Shown piece after piece: positions 29,013 through 45,711 of a DNA stretch of 57,705 nt; position 1 is the stretch's first letter, and every line of letters starts with the position of its first letter. The notes under the pieces were generated by a model. It did not search any database, was not told the origin of the DNA, and worked only from the letters and a program-made list of their open reading frames with translations. A program made the translations under genes and the position numbers. Origin of the DNA: Phycisphaera sp. (GTDB lineage: Bacteria; Planctomycetota; Phycisphaerae; Phycisphaerales; SM1A02); NCBI GenBank assembly GCA_016124975.1, contig WGMP01000051.1, positions 1-57,705 on the forward strand, read 5' to 3'.

Positions 29013-29135
29013 GGGGGTGTTCAGGATGTCGAGCGGGTCTTCACCGGGACGACCCCGAACGCGTGATTCGGGCTTCGGGCGACGGTCTGCTGCCGCGCGA
29101 TTCGAAGCGCGGGGGTCGAGGCGCTTGGTTCAATT

Positions 29136-29564: not shown

Positions 29565-30140
29565 TCAGCGGAGCGGACGCGGGAACTGCACGCTGCGTAC
29601 GCCGCGGAGCCCGACGAGGTCGCCGCCGTCGTCGGGCGCGAACCATGCGACAAGGTCCACGCTCTCGACGGGAAGCGCGTCGGTGCCGCGCGAGGCGAGC
29701 AGCGACAGCTGGAACTCGTGGCACGGCCCGACGAGCGCGCGCGAACGCGCCGCGCGCACGGCGTCGGCGTCGAACACCCAGGTGCGCAGCGGCGCGGCGC
29801 CCGGAGACTCGGGCGTGCCCGACTCGCCGAGGCGGTAGATCGCGAAGTGGAAGCTGCCCTCCGCGAAGAGCGGCGCAGGATGTGGGCGCGCGAAGAGATA
29901 GGCCGTCACCTGTAGCGTGTCGGGCAGCAGGTTCCCGTCTGTGTCGGCGGGTTTCGGCCCGAAGGTGACGGCGATCGCGTTGGGGCGGGCGCTCTCGGGC
30001 GTGGTCGGGCCTGCGGTCGGCTTCGGCGCAGGCGGCGTGCCGTCGGAGGTGGTGACGGTGGTCTGGCAGCCTGCGCACAGCAGCGCCGCTGCGAACATCG
30101 CGCACGCCGCGCGGACCCGCGCGTCACTGCGGCGGTGCAT
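29565..30140 (-). CDS. lipoprotein overlapping the giant secretin gene; candidate pilotin
   Basis: 191 residues from ATG 30140, chosen because GGAGG lies 6 bases upstream; ATG 30155 would add five residues. A lipoprotein signal (AAALLCAGC) gives an acylated Cys, then a Thr/Pro-rich linker and a compact beta-rich domain with no family I recognise (VTAYLFARPHPAPLFAEG, EFQLSLLASRG). The start lies inside the last codons of the secretin gene, so the two are translationally linked. Outer-membrane lipoproteins encoded with secretins are often pilotins that carry the secretin to the outer membrane; here that is an inference from position and signal only. Confidence 0.78.
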   Translation of the reverse strand: MHRRSDARVRAACAMFAAALLCAGCQTTVTTSDGTPPAPKPTAGPTTPESARPNAIAVTFGPKPADTDGNLLPDTLQVTAYLFARPHPAPLFAEGSFHFAIYRLGESGTPESPGAAPLRTWVFDADAVRAARSRALVGPCHEFQLSLLASRGTDALPVESVDLVAWFAPDDGGDLVGLRGVRSVQFPRPLR

Positions 30141-33100
30141 CGGTGCCTCCGGCATCGGGCGTCGGCGCGGCGTCGGAGCCCGCGTCGGAGTTCGCGTCAG
30201 GCTTCGTGCGCGGCCTCGCGTCGTTCGAGGTCTTCACGCGCATCCCCTCGAGCTCGCCGCGGCGGATCTGTTCGAGAAGCTCGGGCGGAAGCGTGAGCTT
30301 GTCGAGCATCTGGTCGCTGAGCTCGCGCGCGCGGTCGCCGCCGCCCTGCGACGGCGAGCGCACCACATGCGGCGTGAGCACGATGAGGAGCTCGGTCTTC
30401 GACGAGTTCTCCTTGAACTGACGGAAGAGCGACCCGACGATCGGGATGTCGCCGAGGAGCGGGATCTTGCGGTCGACGCGCTCGAAGCGGTCGCTGATGA
30501 GGCCGCCGATCACGACGGTCTGCCCGTCCTTCACGGTGACGGTCGTGGTGGCGCGGCGCCGCGTGACCACGGGGCTGTTGAAGTTCTCAGAGATCTGCGT
30601 GGTCTGGAGCGAGAGGCGCGAGATCTCGGGCTCGATCTCCATGCGGACGAAGCCCTCGGGATTGATCGACGGCGTGACCTTGAGCAGGATGCCGATGTCC
30701 TCGGGCGTGACGCTCGACTGCTGCCCCGCGCTCGAGAAGCTGACCGAGTCGGGAAGGCGGATCGTCTCGCCGACCTGGATGAAGCCGTCGGAGTTGTTCT
30801 CGACCATGACCGACGGGTTCGAGAGGACCTGCACGCGGCTCTGCGAGGCGAGCGCGTTGATGAGGAGCTCGAAGTCCTCGGCGCCGATCGCCACATTGGG
30901 CGTGCCCGAGTTCGAGAAGAGCGAGCCGAGCAGCTGGTTGCCCGTGCGGCCGCCGATCCCGGGGATGTTGCCCATGCCCGCGGTCACGTCGACCGTGCCG
31001 ATGCGGCCGCGCCCGAACTCGGGGCCGAGCGCCTCGCTCGAGTCGAGCGACACCTCCGCGAGGAGCACCTGGATGAGCACCTGCGGAGGATCGACATCGA
31101 GCTCGTCGATGATCGAGCGCACCTTCTCGAGGTAGCGCGGGCTCGCGTTGACGAGCACCGTGTTCGACTTCTGGTCGCCGACGATCGTGACCTCGCGCTC
31201 GAGGAGCTTCGCCGCGCTCGGAAGCTCGTCGGTCGAGAGCGTCTGCAGCAGCTTGCGCTGGTCTTCGCTGACGAACTCGTTCACCACGCGCGCGACCTCG
31301 GTCGCGGTCGCGTTCTTCAGCTTGTAGACATAGGTCTCGCGCTCGTTCGCCTCCTGCGCGTCGAGCTCCTTCACCACCTTGTCGACGAGGTCGAGGTAGG
31401 TCGGCGTGCCCGAGACGAGCAGCGAGTTCGTGCGGTCGTCGACCGTGATCGAGAGCTGCTGACGGTCGTCGGGGACGAGCGTGAGGTCGGAGCCGAGCGT
31501 TCCCGCGCCTGCGGCCGCCGCCTCGGGCGCGGTCGCGCCGTCCACGGGCGCGGCGCCGTCCTCGCGCGGCTTGAGCACATAGAGGTTGCCCGACTGGCGC
31601 AGGTTGAAGAGCTCCTTGAGGATGCGCGCCATCGAGTCCGCGTCCGCATTCGCGAGGCGGAAGATGCGGATGTTCTGGCTTCCGCTCGTCGAGCTGTCGA
31701 GGTCGCGGATCATGCGCTCGATGAGCTGCATCGACTCGCGCGGCGCGCGCACGATCACCGTGTTCGTGCGCACATCGGGAACGAGCGAGATCGACTGGCG
31801 CGTCGCGGTCGAGATCTCCATCTCGACCTCCGTGACGCCCGGGTCGCCGCTGTTCTGGACCTCGATCTCCTTGAGGTACTTGAGGATCGTGGCCTGCTGC
31901 CCGCCGCGGCCCGCGAGGGAGTTGCCCGAGAGGACCGACTGGATCAGCCCGACCGTCTCCTGCACATTCGCGCCCTGGAGCGGGATGTACTTGATCTCGA
32001 CGACCGTCTGCGGCCGCGCGCCGTCGAGCTCGTCGACGAGGCGGCGGATGGCGGCGATGTCGGCCTCGGGGCCGCTCGCGACGACGGCGTTGAGGCGCGC
32101 GTCGGCCGACACGCGCACGGTGTTCTCGCCGCGGCGGCGGTTCTCCTCGCGCACATACATGTCGTCGAGCATGCGCACCATCTCGGGCGCGGAGTTCTTC
32201 GACAGCATGATGACCTCGAACGGCCTGCCCGCGAGCTGGTCCTCCGCCGCGCGGGCGAGCAGCTCGACGAGGCCCTTCACGACCTCGAGGTTCTCCTCGC
32301 TCGCGGCGACGATGAGCGAGTTCGACGCCACATCAGGCGCGATCGAGACCGCGTCGGACGGCGTCTGCGACGCGCCGAGCGACGCGGTGCGGTCGCGCAT
32401 CAGCTGCTGGATGCGCGGCGCGATCGACTCCGCGCGCGCGGCGGCGAGCGGAAGGACATGCACGCCCACCGCAGGATTCGACGGGATCTCCTCGAGGCGC
32501 GCCACGATCTGGCGCACCAGCGCCGCGTCCTCGGGGCCGCCCGCGACGAGCAGGCTCGAGGTGCGCGGATCGGCGATGACGAGCGGCTTCACGCGGCGCG
32601 CGACCTCGGGCGTGAGCTCGGCATAGCGGCGGTCGAGGATCTGCCCGATCGCGGACGCGAGCCTGTCGAGGTTCGCCTTGACCACGGGGACGACCTCGAC
32701 GCCCGACTCCTCGAGGAGCTCGGGCGTGTCGAGCTCGGCGACGAGCGAGCGCACGACATCGAACGAGTCGGCGCCAGCCGCGACGAGGAGTCGGTTCGTG
32801 CGGTCGTCCGCGGCGATGGTGGCGCGCTCGAGGTCTGCGGTCTGCGGGTTGGCGCGCGCGAGGCGGTCGACGCGCGCGTCCATCATGCGCTGGAGGATCG
32901 CGGCGAGGCGCGGCGCGCTCGCGTGCTCGAGCTCGAGCGTGCGGATCTCGCGGATGTCGGGGGCGACCGTGCGGTCGAGCTGGCGCAGGAGCTCCTCGAC
33001 CACCGCGAACGACCGCGCGCTGGTCGAGACGACGATCGAGTTGAGCCGCTCGTCGGGAATGACGCGGACGCGGTCCTCCTCGCGGATCGTCTTCGCGGCG

Positions 33101-36100
33101 AACTGCTGGTCGAAGAGCTGGACGAGGAGCGGCCCGAGGCGCGAGGCGCTTGCGTTCTCGAGCGGATAGACGCGCACGACGGAGCCGGGCGCCGACGCCT
33201 CGGTGTCGAGCTGCGTGAGAAGCTCCTCGACGATCGCGAGGTTCTGCACGCTGCCGACGAGGATGAGCGAGTTCGTGGTCGCGTCGGGACGGATCACGAG
33301 CTGCGTGAAGGGCACGAAGACATCGCTCTCGATCGCCTGCCTCGCATCGCCGCCCTCCGCGGCGCGCGCCATGCGGATGCGGCCGACCTGCTTCTGGAGC
33401 GGCGCGCTCTCGGGAAGCTGCGTCGACCCTTCGACGAGCACTGCACGGAGCGTGTCGGCGACCGTGCGCGCGTCGGCGAAGCGGAGGCGCACGATGCGCG
33501 GCTCCATCCAGCCGACCGCGACCTGCGAGTCGAGGCGCTCGCGGAGCACCTCGACCATGGCGACCGCCTCCTCCTTTCCTGCGACGACGACGGTGTTGGT
33601 GCGGTCGTCGACCGAGATCGCGATGTCCTGCGCGAGCGCGGTGCCCGTGGCGCCCGCGGCCTGCGCGCGCACCTGCGTGCCCTGCAGGACGCCGATCTGC
33701 TTCCCCTGCGTGAAGAGGTCGCGCACGATGCGCGCGAACTGCGTGGCCTGGATGTTGTCGAGCGGGAAGACGCGCACGACCGCTGCGTCGGTGACGGGCA
33801 GCGTGTCGAAGAGCCGCGCGGCTTCCTCGAGGGCGCGCACATTCTCCGCGGTCGAGGCGAGGATGAGCGTGTTGCTCGTCGCGTCGGCGAGCACCTTGAC
33901 GGGCTTCTGGAGGTCGAGCGCGATCGACTCGCCCGCGCCGTCGGGCTCGATGCGCAGGCGCCGCACCTGCTCCTGGAGCGCGCGCGCGAGCTCGCCCTGC
34001 CGCGCGCCCTGCGCCGCGGGCGCGGAGGCCTGCGCCACCATCGCGTTCAGCGTCGCGGCCACGCTTGCGGCCGCCGCGTTGCGGAGCCGCACCACGCGCA
34101 CGCTCGCGTCGGCGCCAGGGGGATCCATGTCGATCGACTTGAGGAGCGAGACGATCGTCTCGCGGTCGGCGGGGTTCGCCACGATGACGAGCGCCGCGCG
34201 TCCGCTCGCGACCGACACGCGCAGCGGCTCGGACACGAGGCGCGACACGCCGTCGAGCGGCTGCGGGCGGTCGAGGCCGATGTCCTCGATCACCTTCTTC
34301 GCCGCCTCGGGCGCGATGTTGACGAGATCGATGATGAAGATCCCCTTCGACTGGTCGGGCGCGAGCGCGTCGAGCTGTTCGACGAGCGCGCGGATCTCCT
34401 CGAAGAGCGGGCCCGTCGACGCGACGACGAGGCCGTTCGAGACGGTGTCGATCTGGATCGAGAGCGGAAGCCCCGCCTGGCGCGCGCGCTGCGTGAACGC
34501 CTCGCGGATCGCGCCCGCGACGCGCGAGGCGGGCGCCTTCTCGAGCTTGAGGAGCTGGACGCGCAGCCCCTGCTCCGCGGCCTGCTGCTGCAGCGCCTCT
34601 GCGATCGCCGCGATCTGCGCGAAGTCCTCCTCGCTTGCGCGCACGATGAGCGCGTTGCTCGTCTGGTCGCCCACGATGCGCAGGCCCGTGTCGCGGCCGC
34701 TGCGGCGGATCGGGCTATAGACGCGCTCGATCGCGCGCGCGAGCTGCTCGGGGTTCCCCGTCCGCACCTCGATGAGACGCGGCGGCGGAAGCTGCGCGAA
34801 GTCGGGCTGGTCGAGCTGCGCGATGATCGCCTCGATCTTGCGCATGTTCGTCAGGCTCGCGGCCACGACGATGTTGTTCGAGAACTCGTCGGCGCTCGCG
34901 GTGACCGCGTCCTCGGGGTTCTGCTGGACGACCACCTGCTGCGGCTGCTCGCCCTGCTTCTGCGGCGGAAGCTGCTGCGGCTGCGGGCGGAACGCCTCGT
35001 TGATGGCGGCGGCGACGCTGCGCGCGTCGGCGTGCCTGAGCGCGACCACGCGAAGCTGCCGCGAACCGTCGTACTGCTCGCTGTCGAGGCGCGCCACCAG
35101 CTCGCGGATCGCGGGCCACTCGGACTCCTCGGCGGAGATCACGAGCGAGTTCGTGCCTTCGTCGGCGACGATGCGCACCGACTTCTTCGCGGGGCTGTCG
35201 GCGTCGAGGGCGAACTGGCCGTAGAAGTAGCTGAGCGCCTCCTGCACGCCGCGCGCCTTCGCGTTCGCGAGCGGAACGAAGTCGGTGGTGCGGCGCACCG
35301 AGGGCGCGACATCGACCGCCTTGATGATCTCGGTGATCGTGGCGAACTGCTCGGCGGTCGCGGCGACGATGAGCCTGTTCTCCGCGGTGTCGGCCTCGAC
35401 GCGCGCGGGCTCGGTGGTGGCGCCGTCGGTGGCCTGCGCCGCGAGGAGCCGCGCGAGCGTCAGCGACACCTCGCTCGCGCTTGCGTTCGCGAGCGCGATC
35501 ACGCGGAACTCGATCGGCGAGCGGGTCGGCGTCTCCTCGAGCTCCGCGAGCAGCTTCTCGATGACGGGGAAGCTCTCCGCGGTCGCCGTGACGACGAGCG
35601 AGTTCGAGCGTCGGTCTGCCACGATGCGCGCGTTGACCTGCACGGCGGGCCCGTTCTCGTCGACGCGCACCGCGACGCCCTGCGTGCGGCCCTTCTGGTC
35701 GAGCTGCAGCGACTGCGTGAGGACGCGCACCGCCTCCTCGGCGCGCGCGGCCGTGAGCGAGAAGGTGCGGATCACCGTTTCCTCGGCGCTCGCGGGCGCG
35801 TCGAGGCGCTCGATGAGCGCGCGCACCTGCTCGAACTGCGCGCTCGGCGCGCTCACGAGGACGCTGTTGGTGCGGACATCGGGCGTGACGGCCACGCCTG
35901 CGTTCGCTGCGCCGCGGCCGCGGAACTGCTCGGCGACCATGCGCGCGATGTCGGTGGCCTGGCCCTTCTTCAGGACGACGATGTCGCTGCGCCGCTCGCC
36001 GCCTGCGTGCGGCTGATCGAGCCGCGACACCAGGTCGCGCACGGTGCGCACATCGTCGGCGCTTCCCGCGACGAGGAGCGCGCCGCCCGACGCGCTCGGG

Positions 36101-39100
36101 ACGATCGTGGCGCGGCCCGCGCCGCCCTCGCCCTGCGCCCGGTCCTCGAGGAACTGCTTGAGCGTCGCCGCGAGCTCCGCTGGCTGCGCGAACTCGACGG
36201 GGACGACCGCTGTCTCGCGGTTCTCGACGACGAGCGTCGCCGCGAGCGAATCGAGCAGCGTGCGGACCTCGCCGTGCTGCGCGTCGGTGGCGCGCACGAG
36301 GATGCGACCCGCGCGAGGCACGGAGACCACGCGCGAGCCCGTCGACGCAGCGCCCGTCTCCCACGGCCGCTGCGGCCGCTCGCCGAGCGTGTCGCGCACG
36401 AGCGCGGCCACCTGCTCGAGGTCTCCGAAGCGCACCTCGTAGGCGCGGACCGCGCGCTGCGCGCCCTCGTCGGGCGCCACATCGAGCGTGGCCACGATCT
36501 CGCCGACAAGCGCGAACCGGTCGCCGCGACCGATCGCGATGAGCGCGTTGCGGCGCTCGTCGGCGCGCACGGTGGCCGAGTCCTCGGGCGAGCCGCCGCC
36601 CATGTCGGAGAGCATCTGCTCGACCGTGCGCGCGAGGTCGCCCGCGCGCGCATGACGCAGCGCGTGCACCTTGAACTCGTAGGCGGGAACCACCTCGGGC
36701 GCGTCGAAGGCGCGCGTGAGCTCCTCGATCTCGGCGAAGTCGGCGTCGGAAGCGGCCACGAAGAGCATGGCGCTGCGCGCGTCGCCGAGGATCGACACGG
36801 AGCGCTGCGCGCGGCCACGACCGCCGCCGGCGAGCTGCGCACGGTCGTCGAAGAGCTTCTGCAGCGCAGTCGCCACGCGCTGCGCGTCGGCGCGCTCGAG
36901 CCGCAGCTGGCGGATCGCGAACTGCTGGGTTGCGCTGCGGTCGACCTCGCGCACGATCTCGCGGATCTCGGCGAGGATCGCGTCCTCGGCGCGCACGAGA
37001 AGCACGCCCGCCGCGTCATCTGCGACGACGCGCGCGCGCTCGCGGCGGCCCGGGTCGGCCGCGATCACGATGCGCTCGATGGTGCTCGCAACATCGCTTG
37101 CGCGCGCGCTTGCGAGAGGAATCGTCTCGAGTGGCGCGAGATCCTTCGCGGAGGGCTCGTCGAGCCGCGCGACGAGTCGCTCGACCTCGGGGAGGAGCCC
37201 CGCTCCGCCCGCGACGACGAGCGTGTTCGTGCGCTCGTCCGCGGCGAACTCGGGCACGCTGACCACCATGCCCTGCCCCGTGAGCGCGCGGCCGCGCGCG
37301 GCGAAGATCGACTGGAGGCTGCGCGCAAGCTCGCCCGCGCGCGCCGAACGCAGCGGCATGAGCCGCACCTCGGGGTCGACCGCGCGCTCGACGCGGTCTG
37401 CGAAGGCGATGAAGCGGTCTGCGAAGGCGATCGCCTCGGGCGAGCCGACAACGGTGACGGCGTTCGCCTCGCGCTCGACGACGACGCGGAGGCGCGACGG
37501 GTCGAACGGCGCCGCGGCGGGCTCGCCGGCCTCACGGCCTCCATCGGGGCCCGCATCGAGGATCGTCACCGCAAGCGAGCGCAGTCGCGCACCAGCGCCA
37601 TCGCTCGCAACCGCGCGGAGCGACTCGGCGACGCGCTGCGCGCCCGCGTTGCGGAGCACATAGCTCTTCACGACGACCTGCTCGGTCTGCTGCCCGCGCG
37701 CGAGCGTGGCCACGAGCTGGCCGACGGTCTCGAAGTCGCGGTCGCTCGCCACGACGAGGAGCGCGCGTCGCTCGGGGTCGGCGACGACGGCGACGCGCTT
37801 GGCGAGATCGCCGACCGCGCCGCCCGGCGGCGTGATGCGCGCGATCGCGCCGACGACGACCGACGCGAGGCTGGTCGGGTCGGCCGACGGCGGAAGCTGG
37901 ATCGCGCGGATGCGCGACCCTTCCGCGGGCAGCGACTTCGACGCCTGCTCGACGAGACGCATGGCGCGCTCGATCTCGCGCGGCGAACCGAGGAGAAGCA
38001 GAGAGTTCGTCTCCTTGTCGACCGCGACGGTGACGCCTGACTGGTCCTTGGCTTCGGCTTCCTGCGATGCCACCGCATCGGACGGCGCCTGGAGCGGCGT
38101 TGCGAACGCAAGCGTCACGAACGCCATCCGCGCGGGAAGCGGCGGCGGCCACAGCGCGCCCTGCGCGCCCGCAGGGGGAGCGGATGCGGGCGCGGGCTGC
38201 GCGGGCTTCGGGTCGTAGCGCTTGAGAAGCTCCTCGACGGTGATGACCTCGACCTCGCCGTCGCCGGTCTCCATGAGACGGCGCAGCAGGCGCGCCATCT
38301 CCTCGGCGTCGCCCTTGGCGGGGTCGAGCGGCACCGCTCGCATCGCGCGCGCGCCCGTCACGGTCGCGTTGTCAAGACGCGCCACCACGCTCTCGATCGT
38401 GGTGAACTGCCTGTCGGTCGCGCGCACGAGCAGGCTGTTGCTCGCGGCGTTTACGCGGATGACGGGCGGCGTCTCGGTGCCATCGTCGGTCTCGAAGAGG
38501 TCGACGAGGCTGCTCGCGATCTCGGTTGCCTCCGCGTTGCGCAGCGTGAGGACGCGCACCGAGCGGCCCGTGTCCTGCCCAGGGGCGACATCGAGCTGCT
38601 GCAGCATCTCCTCGGCAGCGTCGAGCGCGGCGGGAGTCGCGGAGATGACGACGGCGTTGAGGCGCTCGTCGGCGATCACGCGCAGCGACGGCTCGACGGC
38701 GAGCGCGGCGCCCGCGGCCGCGCGTCCGCGCTCGGCGCGGCGCGCCTCGCCCGCGAGGAGCTGCTCGACGAGCGGCGCCATCTGCCCTGCGCGCGCGTTC
38801 TTGAGGAACACCGTGCGCACGCGCGCTGCGTCGCGCGGCCCGCGCACGTCGATGGTGCGGACGACGGCGTCGACCTCGGCAAGCTCCGCGGGTTCCGCGG
38901 CGACCACGATCGAGTTGCTCGAGGTCTCCGCGCTCACGACCGCGCGCCGCGCATTCGGCCGCGCGGCCGCGCGCGCCGCGAGCGCCTGCTCCACGGCCTT
39001 CGCGACATCGGCCGCGCTCGCCTGCGAGAGCGGATAGACGCGGATCTCGGTGGGCGCATCGCCCTGCCTCGGGCGGTCGAGCTGCGCGACGACCTCGGAC

Positions 39101-42100
39101 GCGACGGCCATCAGCTCGCTCGGCGCCGTGACGAGCACGCGGTTGTTGCGCTCGTCGGCCGCGACCTTCGGCTCGACGACGGGCGCGCCCGCGCGCGCCG
39201 CGGAGACGAGCGACGCTGGCCAGCGCGAGCGGTCGCCGAGGATGGCCTCGAGCGCCGATGCGACGACCGACGGCGCAGCGTGCGCGAGGTCGATGACGCG
39301 GAAGTCGGCTGCGGGCGTGGCGAAGGCGCGCGCGTCAAGTTCGCCGAGCAGCGTCTTCGCGCGCTCGGTTCCCTCCGCGGGGCCGACGATGACGATCGCG
39401 CCCGACTGTGCGAGCGCGGAGAGCTCGACGCGGTTGACGCCCGACGAGCCCGTCGCGTCGAGGACGCGTCGCGCCTCGTCTGCGAGCGCGGTCGCGGCGG
39501 CCTTCGCGGGCGTGAAGACGGCCCAGCTCCGCTGCGTGGCGTCGCCTGCGCGGTCGAGCTCGCGGATCAGCCCTTCGGCCACCGTCATGATGCGCGCGGC
39601 GCCCGAGACGATGAGCGAGTTCGTGCGCGGGTCGGCCTCGACGCGCACGGGCGGCGTGGCGTCGGCCTGGCCGCGGTTGCGGCGCATGCGCTCGAGGACG
39701 ATGCGCGGATCGGTCGCCTGCTGGTCGGCGAGCAGCCGCTGCACGAGCGGCGCGAGGAGCCCCGCGTCCGCGTTCGAGAGCGTGAAGGTGCGCGCGTCGA
39801 CCGCGTCGAGCGCGGGCCGCTCGTCGAGGGGCGCGAGCAGCTTCTCGGCTTCATCGAGGTCGCCCGCGGGTCCGACGAGAAGAAGCGCGTTCGCGCCCGC
39901 CGCGGGAATGATCTTCACCTCGAACGGTTCGCGCGTGACGGGGCGCACAGCGCCCGCGAGCGCCTGCGAGAGGCCGTCGGCCACGAGCGCTGCGTCGGCG
40001 TACATGAGCGGCCGCACGCGGACGACGGGGTCGAGCGCAGACGCGCTGCCGTCGTCGAGCTGGCGCACGAGCTCCTCGACCACGGGAATGAGCGCATCGG
40101 GCGCGCTCACGATGAGCGCGTTCGAGCGGCGGTCGGCCGCCACATCGAGGACGCGCTCGGAGCGGCCCGCGAGCGACGGCTCGATCTGCGCGAGGCGACC
40201 TTCGAGCGCGTCGCGCACGAGCGGCGCGAGCGACTCCGCGCGCGCGACCTTCAGCTTGAAGACGCGCAGCGTGGTCGTCGTCTGCGCCGCGCCCTCGACG
40301 CCGCGCACCACCTGCTCGACCTTCGTGAACACATCGGGCGCGCCGCTGACGACGAGCGTCTTCGACACGGGCTCGACGCTCACGATCGTGGCCGATCCGT
40401 CGGCGCCGAGCTGCCCTGCGGCGGCGAGGTCGCGAATCGTCTTCGCCACGGTCTCGAGGTTCGCGTCGGAGAGCCGCCAGGTGCGGATCTCGCTCTCGGG
40501 CATCGCCTGCGCCCGGTCGAGCTGCTCGACGAGCCGCTCGAACCCCGCCATGCGCGCGATCGGCGCATCGACGATGAGCGAGTTGGTCTGCGCGTCGGCG
40601 CGCACCACGACCTCGCGCGGCGGCTGCAGCTCGGGGCGCGCGCGGCCGCGCGGGTCGACGGGCACGGGCGGCGCGGGATACATCTCGTCGATCGTGCGCG
40701 CAAGCTCGGCCGCGCGCGCGACCTTCAGCGAGAAGATGCGGATCTCGCGGTCGGAGCCTGACTGGAGCGCCGAGCCGTTGAGGTCCTCGACGATGCCCTG
40801 GATCTCGGGAAGGAGATCGGGATGCGCGGCCACGATGAGCGCGTTCGTCTGCGCCTCGGCCGTGATCTGCACGGGGCGTGCGCTCTTCTCCTCGGGCGCG
40901 CGCTGCGCATACTGCGCGTTGAGCGCCGCCGCGAGCGTGGCGGCGTCGGCGCTGCGGAGCTGGAGGACGCGCAGGGGCGGCGTCGCGCCCGACGCCACAT
41001 CGATGTTGCGGAGGATCGCCGAGAGAAGCTCGTGCTGCCGCGGCTCCGCGGCGATGAGAAGCGAATTCGTCTGCTCGAGCGCCTCGATCGCAGGCGCGCG
41101 CAGGAACCCAGCGGCCTGACCGAGCCGGCCCGCCGCGAGCCCTTCGAGCGCCGACTTCGCGTCGGCCGCGCGCGCATGGACGAGCGGCACCACGCGCACA
41201 TCGGCGCCTGGAAGCGCCACGCCGAGGAACTGCCTGCATGCGTCGGCGAAGCGCGTGAGCGGCTCTTCCTCGCCGCTTGCGACGATCGTGCCGTTCGCAG
41301 CGTCGACCTCGACCTCGACGAGCGGAAGCTGGCCTTCCGCGGGCTCGAGGCCCGCGAGCTTGAGCGCGCGCGCGGAGAGCTGCGCAAGGTCCGCGCCGCC
41401 CGCGTCGATCACGCGCACCGCGCGACGGACGGGCACGGCCTGGAGCTGGCGCAGCAGCTGCTCTGTCTTCTCGAAGGTCGTCGCGTCGCCCGCAACGATG
41501 AGCGTGCGGCTTGCGGGCTCGGTCTGGACGATCACCTCGACGGGCTTCGCGCCATCGACCGCGGGCTTCGCCAGCATGCCGCGCGCGGCGAGGTCGCGCA
41601 GGCTCGCGGCGATGCGCTCGATGTCGCCCCGGTCGACGCGATAGGTGCGCAGCTCGGCCTGCGGCGGAAGCGGCGTGCGGTCGAGCGTCTCGACGAGCTG
41701 CTCGAAGCTGGCGCGGCGCTCGCGCGGCGCCTCGACGATGAGCGTGTTCGTAACGGCGTCCGCTGTGACGAACACCTCCTTCGGCTTCTGGAGGTGCGGC
41801 AGCGGGCGTCCGCGCGCATCGAGCGGAACGGGCGGCGGCGGATAGAGCTTGTCGAGCGCCGACGCGAGGTCGGTCGCCTTCGCGGCCTTCAGCGCCACGA
41901 CGAAGGTCTCGCGCTCGGGCTGCCCGCCCGCCTCGCCCGCGCGGTTCATCTCGTCGACGAATCCGCGGATCTCCTCGAAGACCTCCGTGTGCGCGGTGAC
42001 GATGAGCGTGTTGGTGACCGCGTCGCTTGCGATGCGCACGGGGCGCGCGCGGCGCTCGTCCGCAGGGCGCGCGTCGAAGCGCGCGCTGAGCATGGCGCCG

Positions 42101-44523
42101 AGCTGCGCCGCGTCGCCGCCGCGCACCTGGAGGAGCCGCATCGGCGGCATCGCCTCGGGCGACGCCACGTCGAGGTCGGCGATGAACGACGCGACGAGCT
42201 CGAGCTGCGGTGCCTCGCCGATCACGAAGAGCGAGTTGGTCGGCTCGATCACCCGGATCTCGACCGCGGGAACGCTGCGCGACGGGTCGACGGGCGCCGC
42301 CGACTGGAGGAGCGGCGCGAGCTTCGCGGCGACCTCCGCCGCGCTGCCCGCGCGGAGCGCGATGATGCGGCCCGTGCGCGGCGGCGGCATCAGCTGCCGC
42401 GCCTGCGCGATGGCGTCCTCGTAGAGCCGCACGGCGTCGCGCGCGCCCGACACGAGGAGCGCGCCGCTCGTTCCGTCGATCTCGACCGTGGGGCGCGCAA
42501 GCGCCGCGTCGCCGCCCTGCGAGATGCGCGCATAGACGCCGTCGGCGCGCTCGACGAGCTTCGCCGCGTCGGTTCCGGGCACGGGAATCGCGCGGAACGC
42601 GAACGCGTCGCGCGACGGGCGGTCGAGGCCCGAGAGAAGCGACCGCACCTCGGCCACCGCCGTCGGCGCGCCCGACACGAGCACCGACTTCGTCGCGTCG
42701 AGCGGCTCGATCACGGGCGGCTCGAAGGGCGTGCCGTCGCGCGGGTCAAGCACCTGCCGCGCGAGCTCGCGCAGCTTGGGCGCAAGCTCCGACGGCACGG
42801 CGTTCGCCACGGGGACCTGCAGCGTCTCGCGGTCGATCGCGCGCGTGCCGTCCACCTGGTTCAGGAGCTCCGTGAAGCGCGAGATCGACTGCGCGCTTCC
42901 GATGAGGACGAGCTCGCGACTGCGCGCGTCGAGCTCGATGCGCAGGCTGCGCGCGGCGTCGGCCGCGGGCGACTGCGCCTCGTAGAGCTCTCTCGCGCGC
43001 GACACGCTCTGCTCGGGGTCCGAGCTCGTGACGCGCATCAAGCGCACCTGCCGCTCGATGTTCGCGGGTCGGTCGAGCGTCTCGACGATGGCGCGGATGC
43101 CCGCGATGTCCGCGGAGTCGCCCGACACGAGGAGCGTGCGTCCGTCGGGGCCGGGCACGAGCGCCGTCTCGTCCTGCTGCCGCTTCGAGAGAAGCGAGCG
43201 CACCGCAGCGAGGATCGCCTCGGGCGACGCGCTCTCGAGCTCGAGCGCCACGATCGCGCGGTCGCCGCGCGCACGCTCGCGCACCACGGGCGTCTGCCGC
43301 ACGCGCGAGGCGTCGAAGCCCTCCATCTCCGCGACGAGCCGCTCGGCGTCGTCGATCGACGCGAGGTCGCCGACGACCGTCACGCGCTCTGCCTCGGGCA
43401 GCGCGACGATGGTCGGCTTCTTGTCGGCGGGATACGACGCGAAGAGCTGGTCGAGCCGCTGCTTCGCGACATCGGCCTTCAGCTTGGTCACGGGGAATGT
43501 CTTCATCCCGCGGCCGCCCGCCGCGGTCGGCGCCGCGCCGCCCTCGACGGGCACATCGAGGAGTTCGATCGTCTGCTTGAGCTGGTCGATCTTCGCGCGC
43601 GCGCCGCGCGCCACGATCGAGTTCGTGCGGTCGTCGGCCGCGACGACGAGGCCCGCCACGCGGTTCTCCTCGATCTTGACGCGCTTTCCGTCGGCGGGGT
43701 TCACCACGAACTCGACCACGCGCTCGCCCATAAGCGCCTGCAGGCTCTTGATGAGCTCCGAGGCGCGCGCGTGGCGGATCGGGATGAACTCGATGATGTT
43801 CTCGACATCCTGGCGGTCGAGCTCGTCGATGATGCGCTGGAGCCTGCGCACCTGCGCGGCCGTCTCGACGACGAGCACGGCGTTCTGCTGCTCGAGCGCG
43901 GTGACCGACCCGTAGGTCGCGACGAGGTTGCGCAGCTGCTCGGCGACGGGCTTCGCCTGCGCGTTGAGAAGCGGCAGGACGACGGTGACGATCGTGTCGT
44001 CGGTGACCTGCGCGGGCACGGTGCCGACGAAGGTCGGAACGTTCTCGCGCTTCATGTCGTCGAGCTTCTGCAGGAACATCCGCCCGCCCTCGACGCGCAG
44101 CATGCAGCCCTGCGTCTGGAGGAGAATGTTGAGCGTCTCGATCGCCTCGGGAAGCGTGTAGTCCTTCGGATAGATGTAGTCGACGGTGCCCGTTGGGACG
44201 GGCGTCTCGCGCACGACGGGATAGCCCGTCATGCGGCTGAAGTAGTCGAGGATCTGGTCGTAGGTCTGGCCCTTGAAGTTGAAGCGGAGGCGGACCGAGC
44301 CGACATCCCCGCTCGCATTCTGCGGTGCGGGCTGCGCCACGCCCGCGGGCGGCGTCTGCGCGGCGTCCTGCGGGGCGTCGTCGGCGAGGGCGGAGGGCGA
44401 CGCGATCGCGGCCGCGAGAAGCGGTGCCAGTCCAAGCGCGTGGCGCACGCGGGCGTCGCGGGACGCGCCGTCCCTACCCGCCTTCGTCGCCTTCTTGGTT
44501 TCCTTCGACCGGGACTTCTTCAT
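30124..44523 (-). CDS. gspD: giant secretin (GspD-type) with about 52 tandem N domains
   Basis: About 4799 residues, roughly seven times an ordinary GspD. ATG 44523 has AGGAG 6-7 bases upstream. A basic N-terminus leads to a signal segment (LAPLLAAAIASPSALA) and an N0/STN-like domain (VRLRFNFKGQTYDQILDYF). Then come tandem secretin N-type domains averaging 83 residues, marked by a strand motif such as ADERTNTLVVAG or PDVRTNSVLVSAP; I count 52. The C-terminal 240 residues before the tail (about 4482-4721) are a standard secretin: AEVSLDSSEALG, SRVQVLSNPSVMVENN, GQTVVIGGLISDR, KIPLLGDIPIVGSLF and LLIVLTPHVV. A 78-residue Asp/Pro tail follows. Near residues 2105-2160 a Pro-rich segment and a signal-like hydrophobic stretch interrupt the array. 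The frame is unbroken over 14.4 kb. It is the ninth gene of a type II secretion-like operon. Confidence 0.93.
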   Translation of the reverse strand: MKKSRSKETKKATKAGRDGASRDARVRHALGLAPLLAAAIASPSALADDAPQDAAQTPPAGVAQPAPQNASGDVGSVRLRFNFKGQTYDQILDYFSRMTGYPVVRETPVPTGTVDYIYPKDYTLPEAIETLNILLQTQGCMLRVEGGRMFLQKLDDMKRENVPTFVGTVPAQVTDDTIVTVVLPLLNAQAKPVAEQLRNLVATYGSVTALEQQNAVLVVETAAQVRRLQRIIDELDRQDVENIIEFIPIRHARASELIKSLQALMGERVVEFVVNPADGKRVKIEENRVAGLVVAADDRTNSIVARGARAKIDQLKQTIELLDVPVEGGAAPTAAGGRGMKTFPVTKLKADVAKQRLDQLFASYPADKKPTIVALPEAERVTVVGDLASIDDAERLVAEMEGFDASRVRQTPVVRERARGDRAIVALELESASPEAILAAVRSLLSKRQQDETALVPGPDGRTLLVSGDSADIAGIRAIVETLDRPANIERQVRLMRVTSSDPEQSVSRARELYEAQSPAADAARSLRIELDARSRELVLIGSAQSISRFTELLNQVDGTRAIDRETLQVPVANAVPSELAPKLRELARQVLDPRDGTPFEPPVIEPLDATKSVLVSGAPTAVAEVRSLLSGLDRPSRDAFAFRAIPVPGTDAAKLVERADGVYARISQGGDAALARPTVEIDGTSGALLVSGARDAVRLYEDAIAQARQLMPPPRTGRIIALRAGSAAEVAAKLAPLLQSAAPVDPSRSVPAVEIRVIEPTNSLFVIGEAPQLELVASFIADLDVASPEAMPPMRLLQVRGGDAAQLGAMLSARFDARPADERRARPVRIASDAVTNTLIVTAHTEVFEEIRGFVDEMNRAGEAGGQPERETFVVALKAAKATDLASALDKLYPPPPVPLDARGRPLPHLQKPKEVFVTADAVTNTLIVEAPRERRASFEQLVETLDRTPLPPQAELRTYRVDRGDIERIAASLRDLAARGMLAKPAVDGAKPVEVIVQTEPASRTLIVAGDATTFEKTEQLLRQLQAVPVRRAVRVIDAGGADLAQLSARALKLAGLEPAEGQLPLVEVEVDAANGTIVASGEEEPLTRFADACRQFLGVALPGADVRVVPLVHARAADAKSALEGLAAGRLGQAAGFLRAPAIEALEQTNSLLIAAEPRQHELLSAILRNIDVASGATPPLRVLQLRSADAATLAAALNAQYAQRAPEEKSARPVQITAEAQTNALIVAAHPDLLPEIQGIVEDLNGSALQSGSDREIRIFSLKVARAAELARTIDEMYPAPPVPVDPRGRARPELQPPREVVVRADAQTNSLIVDAPIARMAGFERLVEQLDRAQAMPESEIRTWRLSDANLETVAKTIRDLAAAGQLGADGSATIVSVEPVSKTLVVSGAPDVFTKVEQVVRGVEGAAQTTTTLRVFKLKVARAESLAPLVRDALEGRLAQIEPSLAGRSERVLDVAADRRSNALIVSAPDALIPVVEELVRQLDDGSASALDPVVRVRPLMYADAALVADGLSQALAGAVRPVTREPFEVKIIPAAGANALLLVGPAGDLDEAEKLLAPLDERPALDAVDARTFTLSNADAGLLAPLVQRLLADQQATDPRIVLERMRRNRGQADATPPVRVEADPRTNSLIVSGAARIMTVAEGLIRELDRAGDATQRSWAVFTPAKAAATALADEARRVLDATGSSGVNRVELSALAQSGAIVIVGPAEGTERAKTLLGELDARAFATPAADFRVIDLAHAAPSVVASALEAILGDRSRWPASLVSAARAGAPVVEPKVAADERNNRVLVTAPSELMAVASEVVAQLDRPRQGDAPTEIRVYPLSQASAADVAKAVEQALAARAAARPNARRAVVSAETSSNSIVVAAEPAELAEVDAVVRTIDVRGPRDAARVRTVFLKNARAGQMAPLVEQLLAGEARRAERGRAAAGAALAVEPSLRVIADERLNAVVISATPAALDAAEEMLQQLDVAPGQDTGRSVRVLTLRNAEATEIASSLVDLFETDDGTETPPVIRVNAASNSLLVRATDRQFTTIESVVARLDNATVTGARAMRAVPLDPAKGDAEEMARLLRRLMETGDGEVEVITVEELLKRYDPKPAQPAPASAPPAGAQGALWPPPLPARMAFVTLAFATPLQAPSDAVASQEAEAKDQSGVTVAVDKETNSLLLLGSPREIERAMRLVEQASKSLPAEGSRIRAIQLPPSADPTSLASVVVGAIARITPPGGAVGDLAKRVAVVADPERRALLVVASDRDFETVGQLVATLARGQQTEQVVVKSYVLRNAGAQRVAESLRAVASDGAGARLRSLAVTILDAGPDGGREAGEPAAAPFDPSRLRVVVEREANAVTVVGSPEAIAFADRFIAFADRVERAVDPEVRLMPLRSARAGELARSLQSIFAARGRALTGQGMVVSVPEFAADERTNTLVVAGGAGLLPEVERLVARLDEPSAKDLAPLETIPLASARASDVASTIERIVIAADPGRRERARVVADDAAGVLLVRAEDAILAEIREIVREVDRSATQQFAIRQLRLERADAQRVATALQKLFDDRAQLAGGGRGRAQRSVSILGDARSAMLFVAASDADFAEIEELTRAFDAPEVVPAYEFKVHALRHARAGDLARTVEQMLSDMGGGSPEDSATVRADERRNALIAIGRGDRFALVGEIVATLDVAPDEGAQRAVRAYEVRFGDLEQVAALVRDTLGERPQRPWETGAASTGSRVVSVPRAGRILVRATDAQHGEVRTLLDSLAATLVVENRETAVVPVEFAQPAELAATLKQFLEDRAQGEGGAGRATIVPSASGGALLVAGSADDVRTVRDLVSRLDQPHAGGERRSDIVVLKKGQATDIARMVAEQFRGRGAANAGVAVTPDVRTNSVLVSAPSAQFEQVRALIERLDAPASAEETVIRTFSLTAARAEEAVRVLTQSLQLDQKGRTQGVAVRVDENGPAVQVNARIVADRRSNSLVVTATAESFPVIEKLLAELEETPTRSPIEFRVIALANASASEVSLTLARLLAAQATDGATTEPARVEADTAENRLIVAATAEQFATITEIIKAVDVAPSVRRTTDFVPLANAKARGVQEALSYFYGQFALDADSPAKKSVRIVADEGTNSLVISAEESEWPAIRELVARLDSEQYDGSRQLRVVALRHADARSVAAAINEAFRPQPQQLPPQKQGEQPQQVVVQQNPEDAVTASADEFSNNIVVAASLTNMRKIEAIIAQLDQPDFAQLPPPRLIEVRTGNPEQLARAIERVYSPIRRSGRDTGLRIVGDQTSNALIVRASEEDFAQIAAIAEALQQQAAEQGLRVQLLKLEKAPASRVAGAIREAFTQRARQAGLPLSIQIDTVSNGLVVASTGPLFEEIRALVEQLDALAPDQSKGIFIIDLVNIAPEAAKKVIEDIGLDRPQPLDGVSRLVSEPLRVSVASGRAALVIVANPADRETIVSLLKSIDMDPPGADASVRVVRLRNAAAASVAATLNAMVAQASAPAAQGARQGELARALQEQVRRLRIEPDGAGESIALDLQKPVKVLADATSNTLILASTAENVRALEEAARLFDTLPVTDAAVVRVFPLDNIQATQFARIVRDLFTQGKQIGVLQGTQVRAQAAGATGTALAQDIAISVDDRTNTVVVAGKEEAVAMVEVLRERLDSQVAVGWMEPRIVRLRFADARTVADTLRAVLVEGSTQLPESAPLQKQVGRIRMARAAEGGDARQAIESDVFVPFTQLVIRPDATTNSLILVGSVQNLAIVEELLTQLDTEASAPGSVVRVYPLENASASRLGPLLVQLFDQQFAAKTIREEDRVRVIPDERLNSIVVSTSARSFAVVEELLRQLDRTVAPDIREIRTLELEHASAPRLAAILQRMMDARVDRLARANPQTADLERATIAADDRTNRLLVAAGADSFDVVRSLVAELDTPELLEESGVEVVPVVKANLDRLASAIGQILDRRYAELTPEVARRVKPLVIADPRTSSLLVAGGPEDAALVRQIVARLEEIPSNPAVGVHVLPLAAARAESIAPRIQQLMRDRTASLGASQTPSDAVSIAPDVASNSLIVAASEENLEVVKGLVELLARAAEDQLAGRPFEVIMLSKNSAPEMVRMLDDMYVREENRRRGENTVRVSADARLNAVVASGPEADIAAIRRLVDELDGARPQTVVEIKYIPLQGANVQETVGLIQSVLSGNSLAGRGGQQATILKYLKEIEVQNSGDPGVTEVEMEISTATRQSISLVPDVRTNTVIVRAPRESMQLIERMIRDLDSSTSGSQNIRIFRLANADADSMARILKELFNLRQSGNLYVLKPREDGAAPVDGATAPEAAAAGAGTLGSDLTLVPDDRQQLSITVDDRTNSLLVSGTPTYLDLVDKVVKELDAQEANERETYVYKLKNATATEVARVVNEFVSEDQRKLLQTLSTDELPSAAKLLEREVTIVGDQKSNTVLVNASPRYLEKVRSIIDELDVDPPQVLIQVLLAEVSLDSSEALGPEFGRGRIGTVDVTAGMGNIPGIGGRTGNQLLGSLFSNSGTPNVAIGAEDFELLINALASQSRVQVLSNPSVMVENNSDGFIQVGETIRLPDSVSFSSAGQQSSVTPEDIGILLKVTPSINPEGFVRMEIEPEISRLSLQTTQISENFNSPVVTRRRATTTVTVKDGQTVVIGGLISDRFERVDRKIPLLGDIPIVGSLFRQFKENSSKTELLIVLTPHVVRSPSQGGGDRARELSDQMLDKLTLPPELLEQIRRGELEGMRVKTSNDARPRTKPDANSDAGSDAAPTPDAGGTDAPPQ

Positions 44524-44628
44524 TCGAGACTCCTCTCGCTGACGCGCCCGCACAGCGGCGCATCCGACCACACTGAACCACGCGCGAAACATCGCCGCCC
44601 TGCGGCGAGATGCCACCGCCGCCCTGCT

Positions 44629-45711
44629 TCACTTGCCGAGGGACGACCGTTGCATCAGGTTGCTCCCGACCTGGATTCGGAACGACGCTCCGAAGCCGTC
44701 GAACAGCGCGGCATCGTACTCGACGCCGCGCAAAACAAGCTCTCCGATGGCCGCACCGGGCGTCAGCGTAAGTGGCGTTCCATTCTGGAGATGCCGCAAC
44801 CAGACCTCGGGCCCTGTTGGCCCGTCCACGATGCCCGTGATCTGCCATTCCGCATACGGGAACGGGCTGTTCGGCGCGGCGAGTGCGGCGGGGTCGGTGA
44901 CGCCCACCGCAGTCGGCGGCTCTGCTCCTCCTCGCCCGCCCTTCCTGGCCGCGGCGCGCTCGGGAAGCGTCTTCAACTGGAAGGGGTTCGAGGAGAACAG
45001 TGCCGCGTATCGGGACGCGGACGCAAGTGCCTCTGGCTGCAGGACAAGCGGCTCCTTCGGCGACCTCCCAGGCAGGAAGAGATTCACCATCTTGAGAGTC
45101 AACCTGACCTTTTCTGCGTCCGCGCTTGGGTCGAGTCGGAAAGACTCGACGCGCTTGAGCCAAGGCTCCGCTTCCATGCGGAACATCAGGGCAAAGATCT
45201 TGTCGATCCGCCCAGAGGCCGTCAGGGTCGATTGAACTTCGACGAAATCAGGCTCCTCGCGCAGACGGCGCTGCTCCGGAGAGCGGAACTCGCCCTTGGC
45301 TGGGGTCGAGCGAGTCGTGGCAGTGCCCGTTGAGACCGAGAACTCGGTCAAACCGACTTCTTCGCACGCCCGATTGAGGCGGCGGCGGATCTCGCTGTCG
45401 ACCGTCTCGAGGGAGCCGCCGAGCGTGCGGTCTGCGAACGCTTGGATGCGCGCATCGAGCTGCGGGCGCGACTCGCGCCCCGCACGCGCGCTCGTGAGGA
45501 CACCGCGGAAGTTCGCGATGTCTGCAAGAAGCTTCTCGCGCTCGCTGGTCAGGCGCTTCTCACCCATGAGGAAGCCGACGACGATGGCCAGAACCGCGCC
45601 GCCCCCTGCGGCCCAGATCGGCCAACGCCGCGCGAGCTTGCGGAAACTGGCAGCGCGTGCAGCGGAGGCGACGCGCGCGTCGACAGCGGGAGGCGTGCGC
45701 GGGTCGCTCAT
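44629..45711 (-). CDS. PilO/GspM-like inner-membrane assembly protein
   Basis: 360 residues. A short cytoplasmic N-terminus, one transmembrane helix (WPIWAAGGGAVLAIVVGF, about 30-50), a coiled-coil-like stretch (TSEREKLLADIANF) and a periplasmic alpha/beta domain (DFVEVQSTLTASGRIDKIFAL) match PilO/GspM organisation. In type II secretion and type IV pilus systems this protein pairs with the PilN/GspL protein to form the inner-membrane platform under the secretin. The ATG overlaps the stop of the preceding gene (ATGA). Sequence identity to classical GspM is low; the call rests on topology and position. The longer frame upstream belongs to another reading frame of the neighbour and is spurious. 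Confidence 0.7.
   Translation of the reverse strand: MSDPRTPPAVDARVASAARAASFRKLARRWPIWAAGGGAVLAIVVGFLMGEKRLTSEREKLLADIANFRGVLTSARAGRESRPQLDARIQAFADRTLGGSLETVDSEIRRRLNRACEEVGLTEFSVSTGTATTRSTPAKGEFRSPEQRRLREEPDFVEVQSTLTASGRIDKIFALMFRMEAEPWLKRVESFRLDPSADAEKVRLTLKMVNLFLPGRSPKEPLVLQPEALASASRYAALFSSNPFQLKTLPERAAARKGGRGGAEPPTAVGVTDPAALAAPNSPFPYAEWQITGIVDGPTGPEVWLRHLQNGTPLTLTPGAAIGELVLRGVEYDAALFDGFGASFRIQVGSNLMQRSSLGK

What the first reader, a model, noticed from the sequence alone, without database searches (positions are those of the whole stretch)
30124..44523. A 4799-residue secretin with about 52 tandem N domains
Seen: one unbroken 14.4-kb frame, a signal sequence, an N0-like domain, about 52 repeats of the secretin N-domain motif, and a complete C-terminal secretin pore domain. 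Known: GspD has N0-N3 and about 650 residues, and N domains stack as rings in the periplasm. Inference: stacked rings would make a tube of order 100 nm, far beyond a normal periplasm, possibly suited to the expanded and invaginated planctomycete periplasm, or the array may fold otherwise. This looks like a distinct secretion device rather than a variant GspD.
Basis: partly seen in the sequence, partly recalled or inferred. Interest (0 to 1): 0.93.

Follow-up and report, generated by a model that had tools for sequence, protein, structure and literature searches.

The report
Giant 52-ring type II secretion secretin
An order of planctomycete bacteria, many of them from lakes, makes an outer-membrane secretion pore whose inner stalk is built from about 50 repeated ring-forming domains instead of the usual three or four, which if stacked would form a tube over 100 nanometres long, far longer than the pores of this kind described so far.

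Summary
Confirmed and enlarged. On the minus strand, 30124-44523 is one 4799-residue gene: signal sequence, N0, 52 secretin N domains (50 by Pfam alone) and a complete secretin pore. It is not an assembly artefact: relatives with 23-56 N domains occur in five families of one planctomycete order (some deposited relatives are titled Phycisphaerales or Phycisphaerae), including single-contig genomes. The array is old: domain order is conserved between families, pN/pS is below 1 in all 52 domains in four of five usable comparisons (51 of 52 in the fifth), and linkers average 4 residues.

It is not a separate device but the GspD of a type II secretion system: it follows gspF-G-H-I-J-K-L-M (K, L, M by position), its nearest solved structures are GspD, and the same genome has another T2SS with a 948-residue, 4-N-domain GspD.

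Further findings: length varies by whole domains in two spacer segments while both ends and rings 24-26 are fixed; ring 25 carries a signal-peptide-like insert, and one genus splits the gene there into two exported proteins; a lipoprotein gene follows the giant gene (84 of 87 strong hits adjacent). Best reading: a length-tunable stacked-ring conduit for a deep or invaginated periplasm. Stacking and length (about 130-210 nm) are inferred.

The parts
30124..44523 (-). giant gspD, 4799 aa, 511.5 kDa: signal sequence, N0, 52 N domains, secretin pore
44059..44304 (-). N0 domain (residues about 74-155)
   Evidence: PulD N0-N1, E 1.8e-10; 4jtm Z 11.1
31093..43980 (-). array of 52 secretin N domains (residues 182-4477), mean pitch 82.6 aa, 49 of 51 linkers 2-7 aa
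37945..38349 (-). N domain 25 (residues 2059-2193), retained in 59 of 59 arrays counted and carrying a long insert; the place where genus g29 splits the gene
38086..38130 (-). hydrophobic, signal-peptide-like stretch inside domain 25 (residues 2132-2146)
   Evidence: for this window alone not beyond composition shuffles, p 0.11
30358..30855 (-). secretin pore domain PF00263 (residues 4557-4722)
29565..30140 (-). lipoprotein gene, 191 aa, overlapping the 3' end of the giant gene (start chosen by me); candidate pilotin or tube-associated lipoprotein of an unnamed family
44629..45711 (-). gspM-like (by position; no HMM match)
45708..47408 (-). gspL-like (by position; no HMM match)
47472..49082 (-). 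gspK-like (by position and N-terminus; no significant HMM match)
49079..49816 (-). gspJ-like minor pseudopilin (N_methyl above cut-off; GspJ model below)
49813..50271 (-). gspI-like minor pseudopilin (best model GspI, below cut-off)
50268..51101 (-). gspH-like minor pseudopilin (best model GspH, below cut-off)
51126..51638 (-). gspG major pseudopilin (TIGR01710 and PF08334 above cut-off)
51772..52965 (-). gspF inner-membrane platform protein (PF00482 above cut-off; TIGR02120 best but below cut-off)

Best explanation
It is the outer-membrane secretin (GspD) of a specialised type II secretion system. The C-terminal domain makes the outer-membrane pore; N0 docks on the inner-membrane platform encoded by the same operon; between them 52 N domains per subunit stack as 52 rings and extend the usual GspD vestibule into a periplasmic tube. 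Shown: identity, domain count, operon, conservation. Inferred: about 15 subunits (as in solved GspD), about 7.7 MDa, and at 2.5-4 nm per ring some 130-210 nm in length. The tube has two arms joined at ring 25. The base (rings 1-4), the joint (24-26) and the pore-proximal rings (41-52, apart from 46-47) are fixed, while rings 5-23 and to a lesser extent 27-40 are gained or lost as whole domains, which tunes the length. I propose that it reaches from a retracted or invaginated inner membrane to the outer membrane, while the ordinary T2SS of the same cell works where the membranes lie close. The lipoprotein encoded directly downstream probably pilots the secretin or holds the tube.
For: Domain count and pore; N0 and GspD-like ends; beta-alpha-beta-beta-alpha pattern repeating along two AlphaFold models of 1180 and 1200 residues. 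Operon in the window; GspL and GspM found upstream in 29 of 33 same-family giant loci fetched. Uniform linkers. Domain order: 52 of 52 reciprocal-best domains in the two complete same-genus proteins; 50 of 50 family-f2 domains alignable with 32-36 reciprocal best (six loci); z 21.5-28.9 against shuffled order for the f2 and f5 loci tested. pN/pS below 1 in 52 of 52 domains for L055, L056, L079 and L083. Fixed and variable segments in 59 arrays. Natural two-chain form in 3 of 3 genomes fetched of one genus, easier to understand if rings hold each other by stacking than if the array were only a tether. Lipoprotein next to the giant secretin in 84 of 87 strong hits. Precedent: Thermus PilQ, six N rings, 350 A long, said to span most of a wide periplasm (PMC5745081, passages, section 7).
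Against: No structure shows rings or stacking here; the models have pTM 0.32-0.35, so domain placement is undetermined. The same genome has a 4-N-domain T2SS secretin, so a 130-210 nm tube needs a place where the periplasm is that deep. No gspE lies in the window; 11 PF00437 hits elsewhere include an orphan GspE on C50 that might serve it, but without synteny support. GspK, L and M rest on position; in 4 of 33 giant loci no GspL/M was found upstream. Many small-genome genera of the same family lack the giant. A pseudopilus of ordinary kind would have to act along an unusually long tube.
Confidence: 0.6

Rival explanations
1. The array does not stack into a straight tube. Only the last few N domains and N0 form rings; the rest is a folded, flexible or elastic periplasmic tether or scaffold, for example for peptidoglycan or cargo, that lets the pore and the inner-membrane platform separate and approach.
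For: Low pTM of both models; an ordinary-length T2SS secretin in the same genome makes a long rigid tube awkward; length varies between genera.
Against: Linkers of 2-7 residues in 49 of 51 junctions leave little flexibility; individually conserved, non-interchangeable domains kept in order and under purifying selection one by one suggest specific neighbours; the split genus keeps both halves as separate exported chains, which a covalent tether would not tolerate.
Confidence: 0.25
2. The system is a type IV pilus, DNA- or polymer-uptake machine or other distinct device that borrowed a secretin.
For: TIGR02515 (PilQ) and TIGR02516 (type III) also exceed their cut-offs, though whole-protein scores are inflated by the repeats; no gspE in the locus; GspF scores below the TIGR02120 cut-off.
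Against: GspG above the T2SS major pseudopilin cut-off, H and I best matching T2SS models, T2SS gene order; pore region nearest to GspD (3e-70) rather than PilQ (1.4e-39); no PF00437 hit of the genome lies on the window's contig, so no PilT either; the genome has other pilus-type loci on C15 and C34 by gene content.
Confidence: 0.08
3. Internal processing: the signal-peptide-like stretch in ring 25 is cut in all members, so that the working complex is two stacked polymers as in the split genus. This is compatible with the tube model.
For: Hydrophobic stretch in the ring-25 insert (maximum 13-residue hydropathy 1.3 or more in 57 of 64 distinct inserts, in 0 of 251 other long inserts); A-x-A-like endings in several members by eye, and a signal-peptide-like start at the same place in genus g29.
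Against: Only 31 of 64 inserts exceed composition shuffles at 0.05, and the window's own does not (0.11); it may be only a trace of an ancient gene fusion, or the raw material for the derived fission. No signal-peptide predictor was available.
Confidence: 0.2
4. Assembly error, chimera or a decayed gene.
For: The window is from a draft genome of 59 contigs.
Against: Genomes of five families of the order, single-contig ones included, carry it; almost no DNA-level repeats; purifying selection.
Confidence: 0.01

Closest known systems
GspD, secretin of type II secretion (PulD 6hcg, XcpQ 5wln, ETEC GspD 5zdh, ExeD 6i1x)
   Same: N0, N-type domains, secretin pore; nearest solved structures by sequence and predicted fold; T2SS operon
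   Different: 52 instead of 3 N domains beyond N0; 4799 instead of about 650 residues; special ring 25; adjacent lipoprotein of an unnamed family; no gspE in the locus
PilQ of Thermus thermophilus (six rings N0-N5, 350 A)
   Same: extra N rings lengthen the secretin to span a wide periplasm (PMC5745081)
   Different: type IV pilus secretin with six rings; here 52 N domains and a T2SS locus
Medium-long secretins of other planctomycetes (seven loci, frames 1206-2331 aa; 5-11 N domains at E<0.01)
   Same: N array and pore; near GspF and/or GspG in four of the seven
   Different: own group in the tree (97/99) apart from the giants; domain order not clearly alignable with the giants (z 1.7-3.5 in the four tested)
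Ordinary T2SS GspD of the same genome (948 aa, 4 N domains, contig C7)
   Same: best model TIGR02517 (335.7 bits, just under the cut-off of 351.35), in one gene cluster with a GspE (best model TIGR02533, also below its cut-off)
   Different: deeply separate branch in the secretin tree; ordinary length

Membership tests
Type II secretion system secretin GspD | C-terminal secretin pore domain PF00263 | tested here: met
   159.5 bits, cut-off 27.5; fold 5zdh E 5.9e-27
Type II secretion system secretin GspD | N-terminal N0 domain | tested here: met
Type II secretion system secretin GspD | N1-N3 type domains PF03958 | tested here: met
   50 stretches by Pfam, 52 by own profile
Type II secretion system secretin GspD | closest to GspD among secretins | tested here: met
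   TIGR02517 1272 bits against cut-off 351 (score inflated by repeats; PilQ and type III models also pass), PDB profile order GspD, then PilQ, then T3SS
Type II secretion system secretin GspD | about 650 residues with three N domains beyond N0 (usual size; recalled, not a defining rule) | tested here: not met
   4799 residues, 52 N domains; this makes it a variant
Type II secretion system | GspF and GspG in the locus | tested here: met
   PF00482 189.8 bits; TIGR01710 96.5 against 88.85; PF08334 82.9 against 21. GspF is below the TIGR02120 equivalog cut-off (319.9 against 424)
Type II secretion system | minor pseudopilins GspH, I, J | tested here: inconclusive
   prepilin motifs; best T2SS hits to GspH, GspI and GspJ models, all below cut-offs
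Type II secretion system | GspK, GspL, GspM | tested here: inconclusive
   no significant HMM match; assigned by order, N-termini and conservation upstream of the giants
Type II secretion system | ATPase GspE and prepilin peptidase | tested here: inconclusive
   not on the window's contig; 11 PF00437 hits and one PF01478 hit in the genome; which serves this system is unknown
Type II secretion system | GspC | not tested
   no GspC match among the 8 neighbours scanned, but no dedicated GspC search was made; the C-terminus of the GspM-like protein looks GspC/PilP-like by eye only
Type II secretion system | ring-shaped oligomer exporting folded proteins | not testable with these tools
   needs microscopy and secretion assays
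Type IV pilus secretin PilQ | PilQ as nearest relative and pilus gene neighbours | tested here: not met
   pore nearer to GspD; T2SS-type neighbours

The most novel reading that the evidence does not exclude
An order of planctomycetes has turned the T2SS secretin into a modular, length-tunable tube well over 100 nm long and about 8 MDa, made of two stacked arms joined at a special ring 25 and held by its own lipoprotein, so that secretion works across a deep or invaginated periplasm; in one genus the two arms are separate proteins.
Probability: 0.45. Interest if true: 0.93.

Novelty: new variant of a known kind. Interest (0 to 1): 0.86.

Why it matters
The longest N-ring stack that I found described in the papers seen here has six rings (Thermus PilQ, called one of the largest systems characterised; PMC5745081). 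Here the number is 23-56, with a natural series of lengths, a natural split and related genomes without it. That makes the question of whether N-ring number sets the span of a secretin directly testable, and it makes a concrete prediction for the disputed planctomycete envelope: long tubes where the inner membrane is retracted or invaginated. If the subunits oligomerise as in GspD, the complex would be among the largest known in a bacterial envelope (my inference). It also brings a lipoprotein family of which no member scanned gave a credible Pfam match.

Tried and rejected
Assembly artefact: rejected (independent and single-contig genomes). Distinct machine or type IV pilus: disfavoured. Recent tandem duplication of the whole array: rejected at DNA level and by domain order; only a block around rings 8-11 versus 13-16 looks like a later duplication. 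A fixed domain number as an exact ruler: first suggested by six f2 genomes that all have 50 (four of them are one genus), rejected as a general rule when 15 more f2 loci gave 36-51. Cohesin/dockerin 'planctosome' cargo (PMC6461901, section 10): no cohesin match in this genome. Orphan GspE on C50 as the partner ATPase: no synteny seen in the sampled loci. The three-piece array of G484 (L155, 26+19+13 N domains) was not taken as a natural split, because its breaks look like plain frameshifts without signal peptides (by eye). Is the family-f4 giant (L106) of the same origin? Unresolved: long branch (giants with L106 as one group only 79/21), order z 10.5 against this protein but 3.9 against an f2 protein; f4 genomes G515 and G529 carry the adjacent lipoprotein at weaker scores. 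pN/pS is approximate because synonymous sites are near saturation and strongly GC-biased; L075 was set aside for a run of N (1 of 51 domains at 1 or above there), and L077 had 1 of 52. The Acidobacteria contig matched 140 residues at 28%; a survey of its phylum was not possible, so giants outside Planctomycetota are not excluded. Before the retention count only arrays of 30 or more domains were taken and twelve loci were dropped (L057, L075, L078, L082, L086, L087, L088, L106, L151-L154: truncated, interrupted, duplicate-like or of families f3/f4); some of the 59 kept arrays are close relatives of each other. In some searches the five f3/f4 loci and repeated inserts were left out. The placement of lost domains inside the variable segments is only as good as the domain alignment. 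VIA-align rows show single domains mostly; families not listed there are not excluded. The strict pattern search for the downstream lipoprotein succeeded in 47 of 75 frames examined, array fragments included, and failed in the window itself; the profile search supersedes it.

Not in print: searches of the held PMC library listed no paper on secretins with tens of N domains; preprints and most subscription papers are not held. Papers seen: PMC5745081 (passages, section 7), PMC6461901 (passages, section 10), PMC10329019 (passages), PMC5394234 (passages); all others only as search listings.

Full report
1. The observation. The gene lies on the minus strand: ATG 44523 to TGA 30124, 4799 codons, no internal stop; the plus strand of the same interval has stops. 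Pfam finds Secretin_N with 50 independent stretches and one Secretin domain. A profile grown from the giants themselves (seeded with six typed segments of this protein) finds 52 N domains from residue 182 to 4477, all with independent E below 0.01. The segment before them is N0 by sequence and by predicted fold. The predicted mass of the unprocessed chain is 511.5 kDa. Two AlphaFold models of 1180 and 1200 residues show the beta-alpha-beta-beta-alpha pattern again and again, and the beta-rich pore at the end, at mean pLDDT 76.7 and 72.4; pTM is only 0.32 and 0.35, so relative domain placement is not determined. Foldseek ranks GspD/PulD/XcpQ structures first at both ends, and VIA-align agrees.

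2. Not an artefact. A search for PF00263 in 101 genomes of the same family found frames up to 5088 aa, including single-contig genomes G009 (4856) and G032 (4808). In 392 genomes of the phylum, 17 of the listed genomes had best-match frames over 2000 aa: 15 in four families of this order (f1, f2, f4, f5) and 2 in one family outside the class. In 301 genomes of the order (completeness 80% or more), 124 had best-match frames of 2200 aa or more and 76 of 4000 or more, now also in f3. Frames cut by contig ends and the second chain of the split genus are included at the length listed, and both lists were capped, so these counts are lower bounds. Fourteen close named relatives come from planctomycete metagenome-assembled genomes, titled Planctomycetota, Planctomycetaceae, Planctomycetia, Phycisphaerales, Phycisphaerae or uncultured bacterium, several from lakes and ponds by their isolate names. 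Many small-genome genera of the same family lack the giant.

3. Operon. Upstream on the same strand are GspF (PF00482), GspG (above the TIGR01710 and PF08334 cut-offs), three prepilin-like proteins matching the GspH, GspI and GspJ models below cut-off, and three proteins placed as GspK, GspL and GspM by order. Window GspL and GspM have tblastn matches upstream of the giant in 29 of 33 same-family loci. Of the other four, L057 runs off its contig, L040 has only 1.5 kb upstream, and L037 and L053 have 4.8 and 3.1 kb upstream without a match. In L053's genome, GspL/M-like N-termini appear about 16 kb away (by eye). Both f5 loci, five of six f2 loci and the f4 locus L106 show at least one of these neighbours at lower identity. 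No gspE is on the window's contig; the genome has 11 PF00437 hits. On contig C7 the genome has another T2SS-like cluster with GspE, GspF- and pseudopilin-like proteins and a 948-residue GspD with 4 N domains; its GspD and GspE best match TIGR02517 and TIGR02533, both below the equivalog cut-offs.

4. The array is old, ordered and selected. Domains within the protein share 23% identity on average, while position-matched domains of the 11 proteins with 52 domains in that call share 31-78% on average by position. Dynamic alignment of whole domains matches 52 of 52 domains reciprocally in the two complete same-genus proteins (L055, L056), and 50 of 50 domains of six f2 proteins with one clean gap at rings 46-47 and 32-36 reciprocal best matches. 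Against 60 shuffles of domain order the scores are z 24.5-32.9 for two f1 and two f2 proteins, 21.5 for f5, 16.6 for a 32-domain f1 member, 10.5 for f4, and only 1.7-3.5 for four medium-length secretins outside the class. pN/pS is below 1 in all 52 domains against L055, L056, L079 and L083, and in 51 of 52 against L077. Linkers, extrapolated to profile ends, average 4.3 residues; 49 of 51 lie between 2 and 7.

5. Modular length. Among 59 arrays of f1, f2 and f5 taken for having 30 or more domains, counts run from 32 to 56 with modes at 52 (13) and 50 (9). A gene of G003 with its own N0 has 23 N domains. Positions 1-3 are kept in 59 and position 4 in 58 of 59 arrays, positions 25, 26, 41-43, 45 and 48-52 in 59, and 24 and 44 in 58. 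Positions 5-24 are kept at 0.78 on average and 25-40 at 0.95; 46-47 mark the f1/f2 difference. So the ends and a central joint are fixed, and two spacers between them vary by whole domains.

6. Ring 25 and the natural split. In the giants of f1, f2 and f5, domain 25 has a long insert (median 68.5 residues, 64 distinct inserts) with a hydrophobic stretch. Maximum 13-residue hydropathy reaches 1.3 in 57 of 64, against 0 of 251 other long inserts; against shuffles of their own composition 31 of 64 reach p 0.05 or less, and the window's own has 0.11. Several look like signal peptides by eye. In the three genomes of genus g29 that I fetched (G028, G060, G082) the gene is split exactly there: a first frame of 1741, 1573 and 1746 aa with 20, 17 and 20 N domains, and a second of 2431, 2474 and 2506 aa with 24 N domains each and the pore, whose start is signal-peptide-like; in G060 the stop and start overlap as ATGA. 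The split genus is one clade nested among unsplit ones in a quick, midpoint-rooted tree, so the split is probably derived. Domain 25 is then divided between two chains. That both halves are exported separately and conserved is best explained if rings hold each other without a covalent link.

7. A partner. A lipoprotein gene of about 160-220 codons starts within 200 bases of the end of the giant gene, in 20 of the 47 cases found by a strict pattern with a 4-base overlap; in the window it is 29565-30140, minus strand. Of 40 aligned members, Pfam gave two marginal single-member matches (0.024 and 0.064) and no others; the profile has no significant match in the PDB; the window's own has no NCBIfam match. 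In 201 genomes of the order the profile matches 94 at E 0.001 or less; of 87 strong hits (E up to 1.1e-9), 84 lie within 1 kb of a match to the giant secretin (for G489, to an 855-aa fragment). Two of the other three are in genomes whose giant match sits at a contig end (G084, G603), and G511 is a weak f4 hit. In the family sample 64 of 101 genomes match, three of them weakly; of the 20 listed genomes without a match, 19 showed no giant and one (G044) has its giant fragment at a contig edge. I take it as a candidate pilotin or tube-associated lipoprotein; this function is inferred.

8. Evolution. In a midpoint-rooted secretin tree of 60 rows, 41 giants of f1, f2 and f5 form one group (99/99); medium-length secretins form another (97/99); the 4-N-domain secretins of f1 form a third, distant one; the f4 giant is on a long branch of uncertain place. 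The lipoprotein next to the giants of f4 genomes G515 and G529 argues for a shared origin of the system.

9. Mechanism. Solved full-length GspD entries hold 15 chains, and Thermus PilQ with six N rings is 350 A long (PMC5745081, section 7; passages). Taking 2.5-4 nm per ring (the lower bound is recalled), 52 rings would be 130-210 nm and 15 subunits about 7.7 MDa. Planctomycetes can have a strongly enlarged, invaginated periplasm beside sites where the membranes lie close (Planctopirus limnophila and Gemmata obscuriglobus, PMC5394234, passages; their kinship to this order was not examined). An ordinary-length T2SS secretin in the same genome fits a cell with both kinds of site, and speaks against a uniformly wide periplasm. 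Alternatives are a folded or elastic array rather than a tube, and processing into two chains; see the rival explanations.

10. Verdict. It is a T2SS secretin by the protein features that could be tested and by GspF and GspG beside it, with the rest of the machinery partly assigned by position, and it is an extreme variant; the tube is the likeliest but unproven reading.

Noticed in passing
window 29565-30140 (-) and homologues: Lipoprotein family with a P-x-DTDGNGYPD...YLF-type motif tightly linked to giant secretins and without a credible Pfam match; deserves its own study.
   Followed up: yes
L156, L157, L158 (genus g29): Natural two-gene version of the giant secretin, second chain with its own signal-peptide-like start.
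   Followed up: yes
window 1197-4253 (-): A second secretin in the window (1018 aa, PF00263, no Secretin_N by Pfam; best NCBIfam model MshL, far below cut-off).
   Followed up: partly
L128 (own genome, contig C7): Complete-looking ordinary T2SS-like cluster with a 948-aa GspD in the same genome.
   Followed up: partly
L131:8096-10078 (own genome, contig C50): Stand-alone GspE-like ATPase, possible motor of the giant system.
   Followed up: partly
L155 (G484): Giant array broken into three frames (26+19+13 N domains) that look like frameshifts in a two-contig assembly.
   Followed up: no
L053 and L135 (G019), L037 and L134 (G023): Giant gspD separated from its operon (about 16 kb insert with an RND-pump-like gene in G019, by eye; no T2SS genes seen nearby in G023).
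   Followed up: partly
window 29135-29525: 135-bp tandem repeat (2.9 copies, 94% matches) just downstream of the lipoprotein gene.
   Followed up: no
window 6051-8984 (-): DUF5122/Rax2 beta-propeller protein with 141/282-bp DNA tandem repeats, Ig-like and dockerin domains, although no cohesin match was found in the genome.
   Followed up: partly
window 29917-38040 (+), 40822-45333 (+); L057: Very long open frames antisense to the giant gene (2707 and 1503 aa; in L057 the antisense frame, 4361, is longer than the sense one, 4336, which runs off the contig), a by-product of extreme GC3; a trap for length-based gene calling.
   Followed up: no
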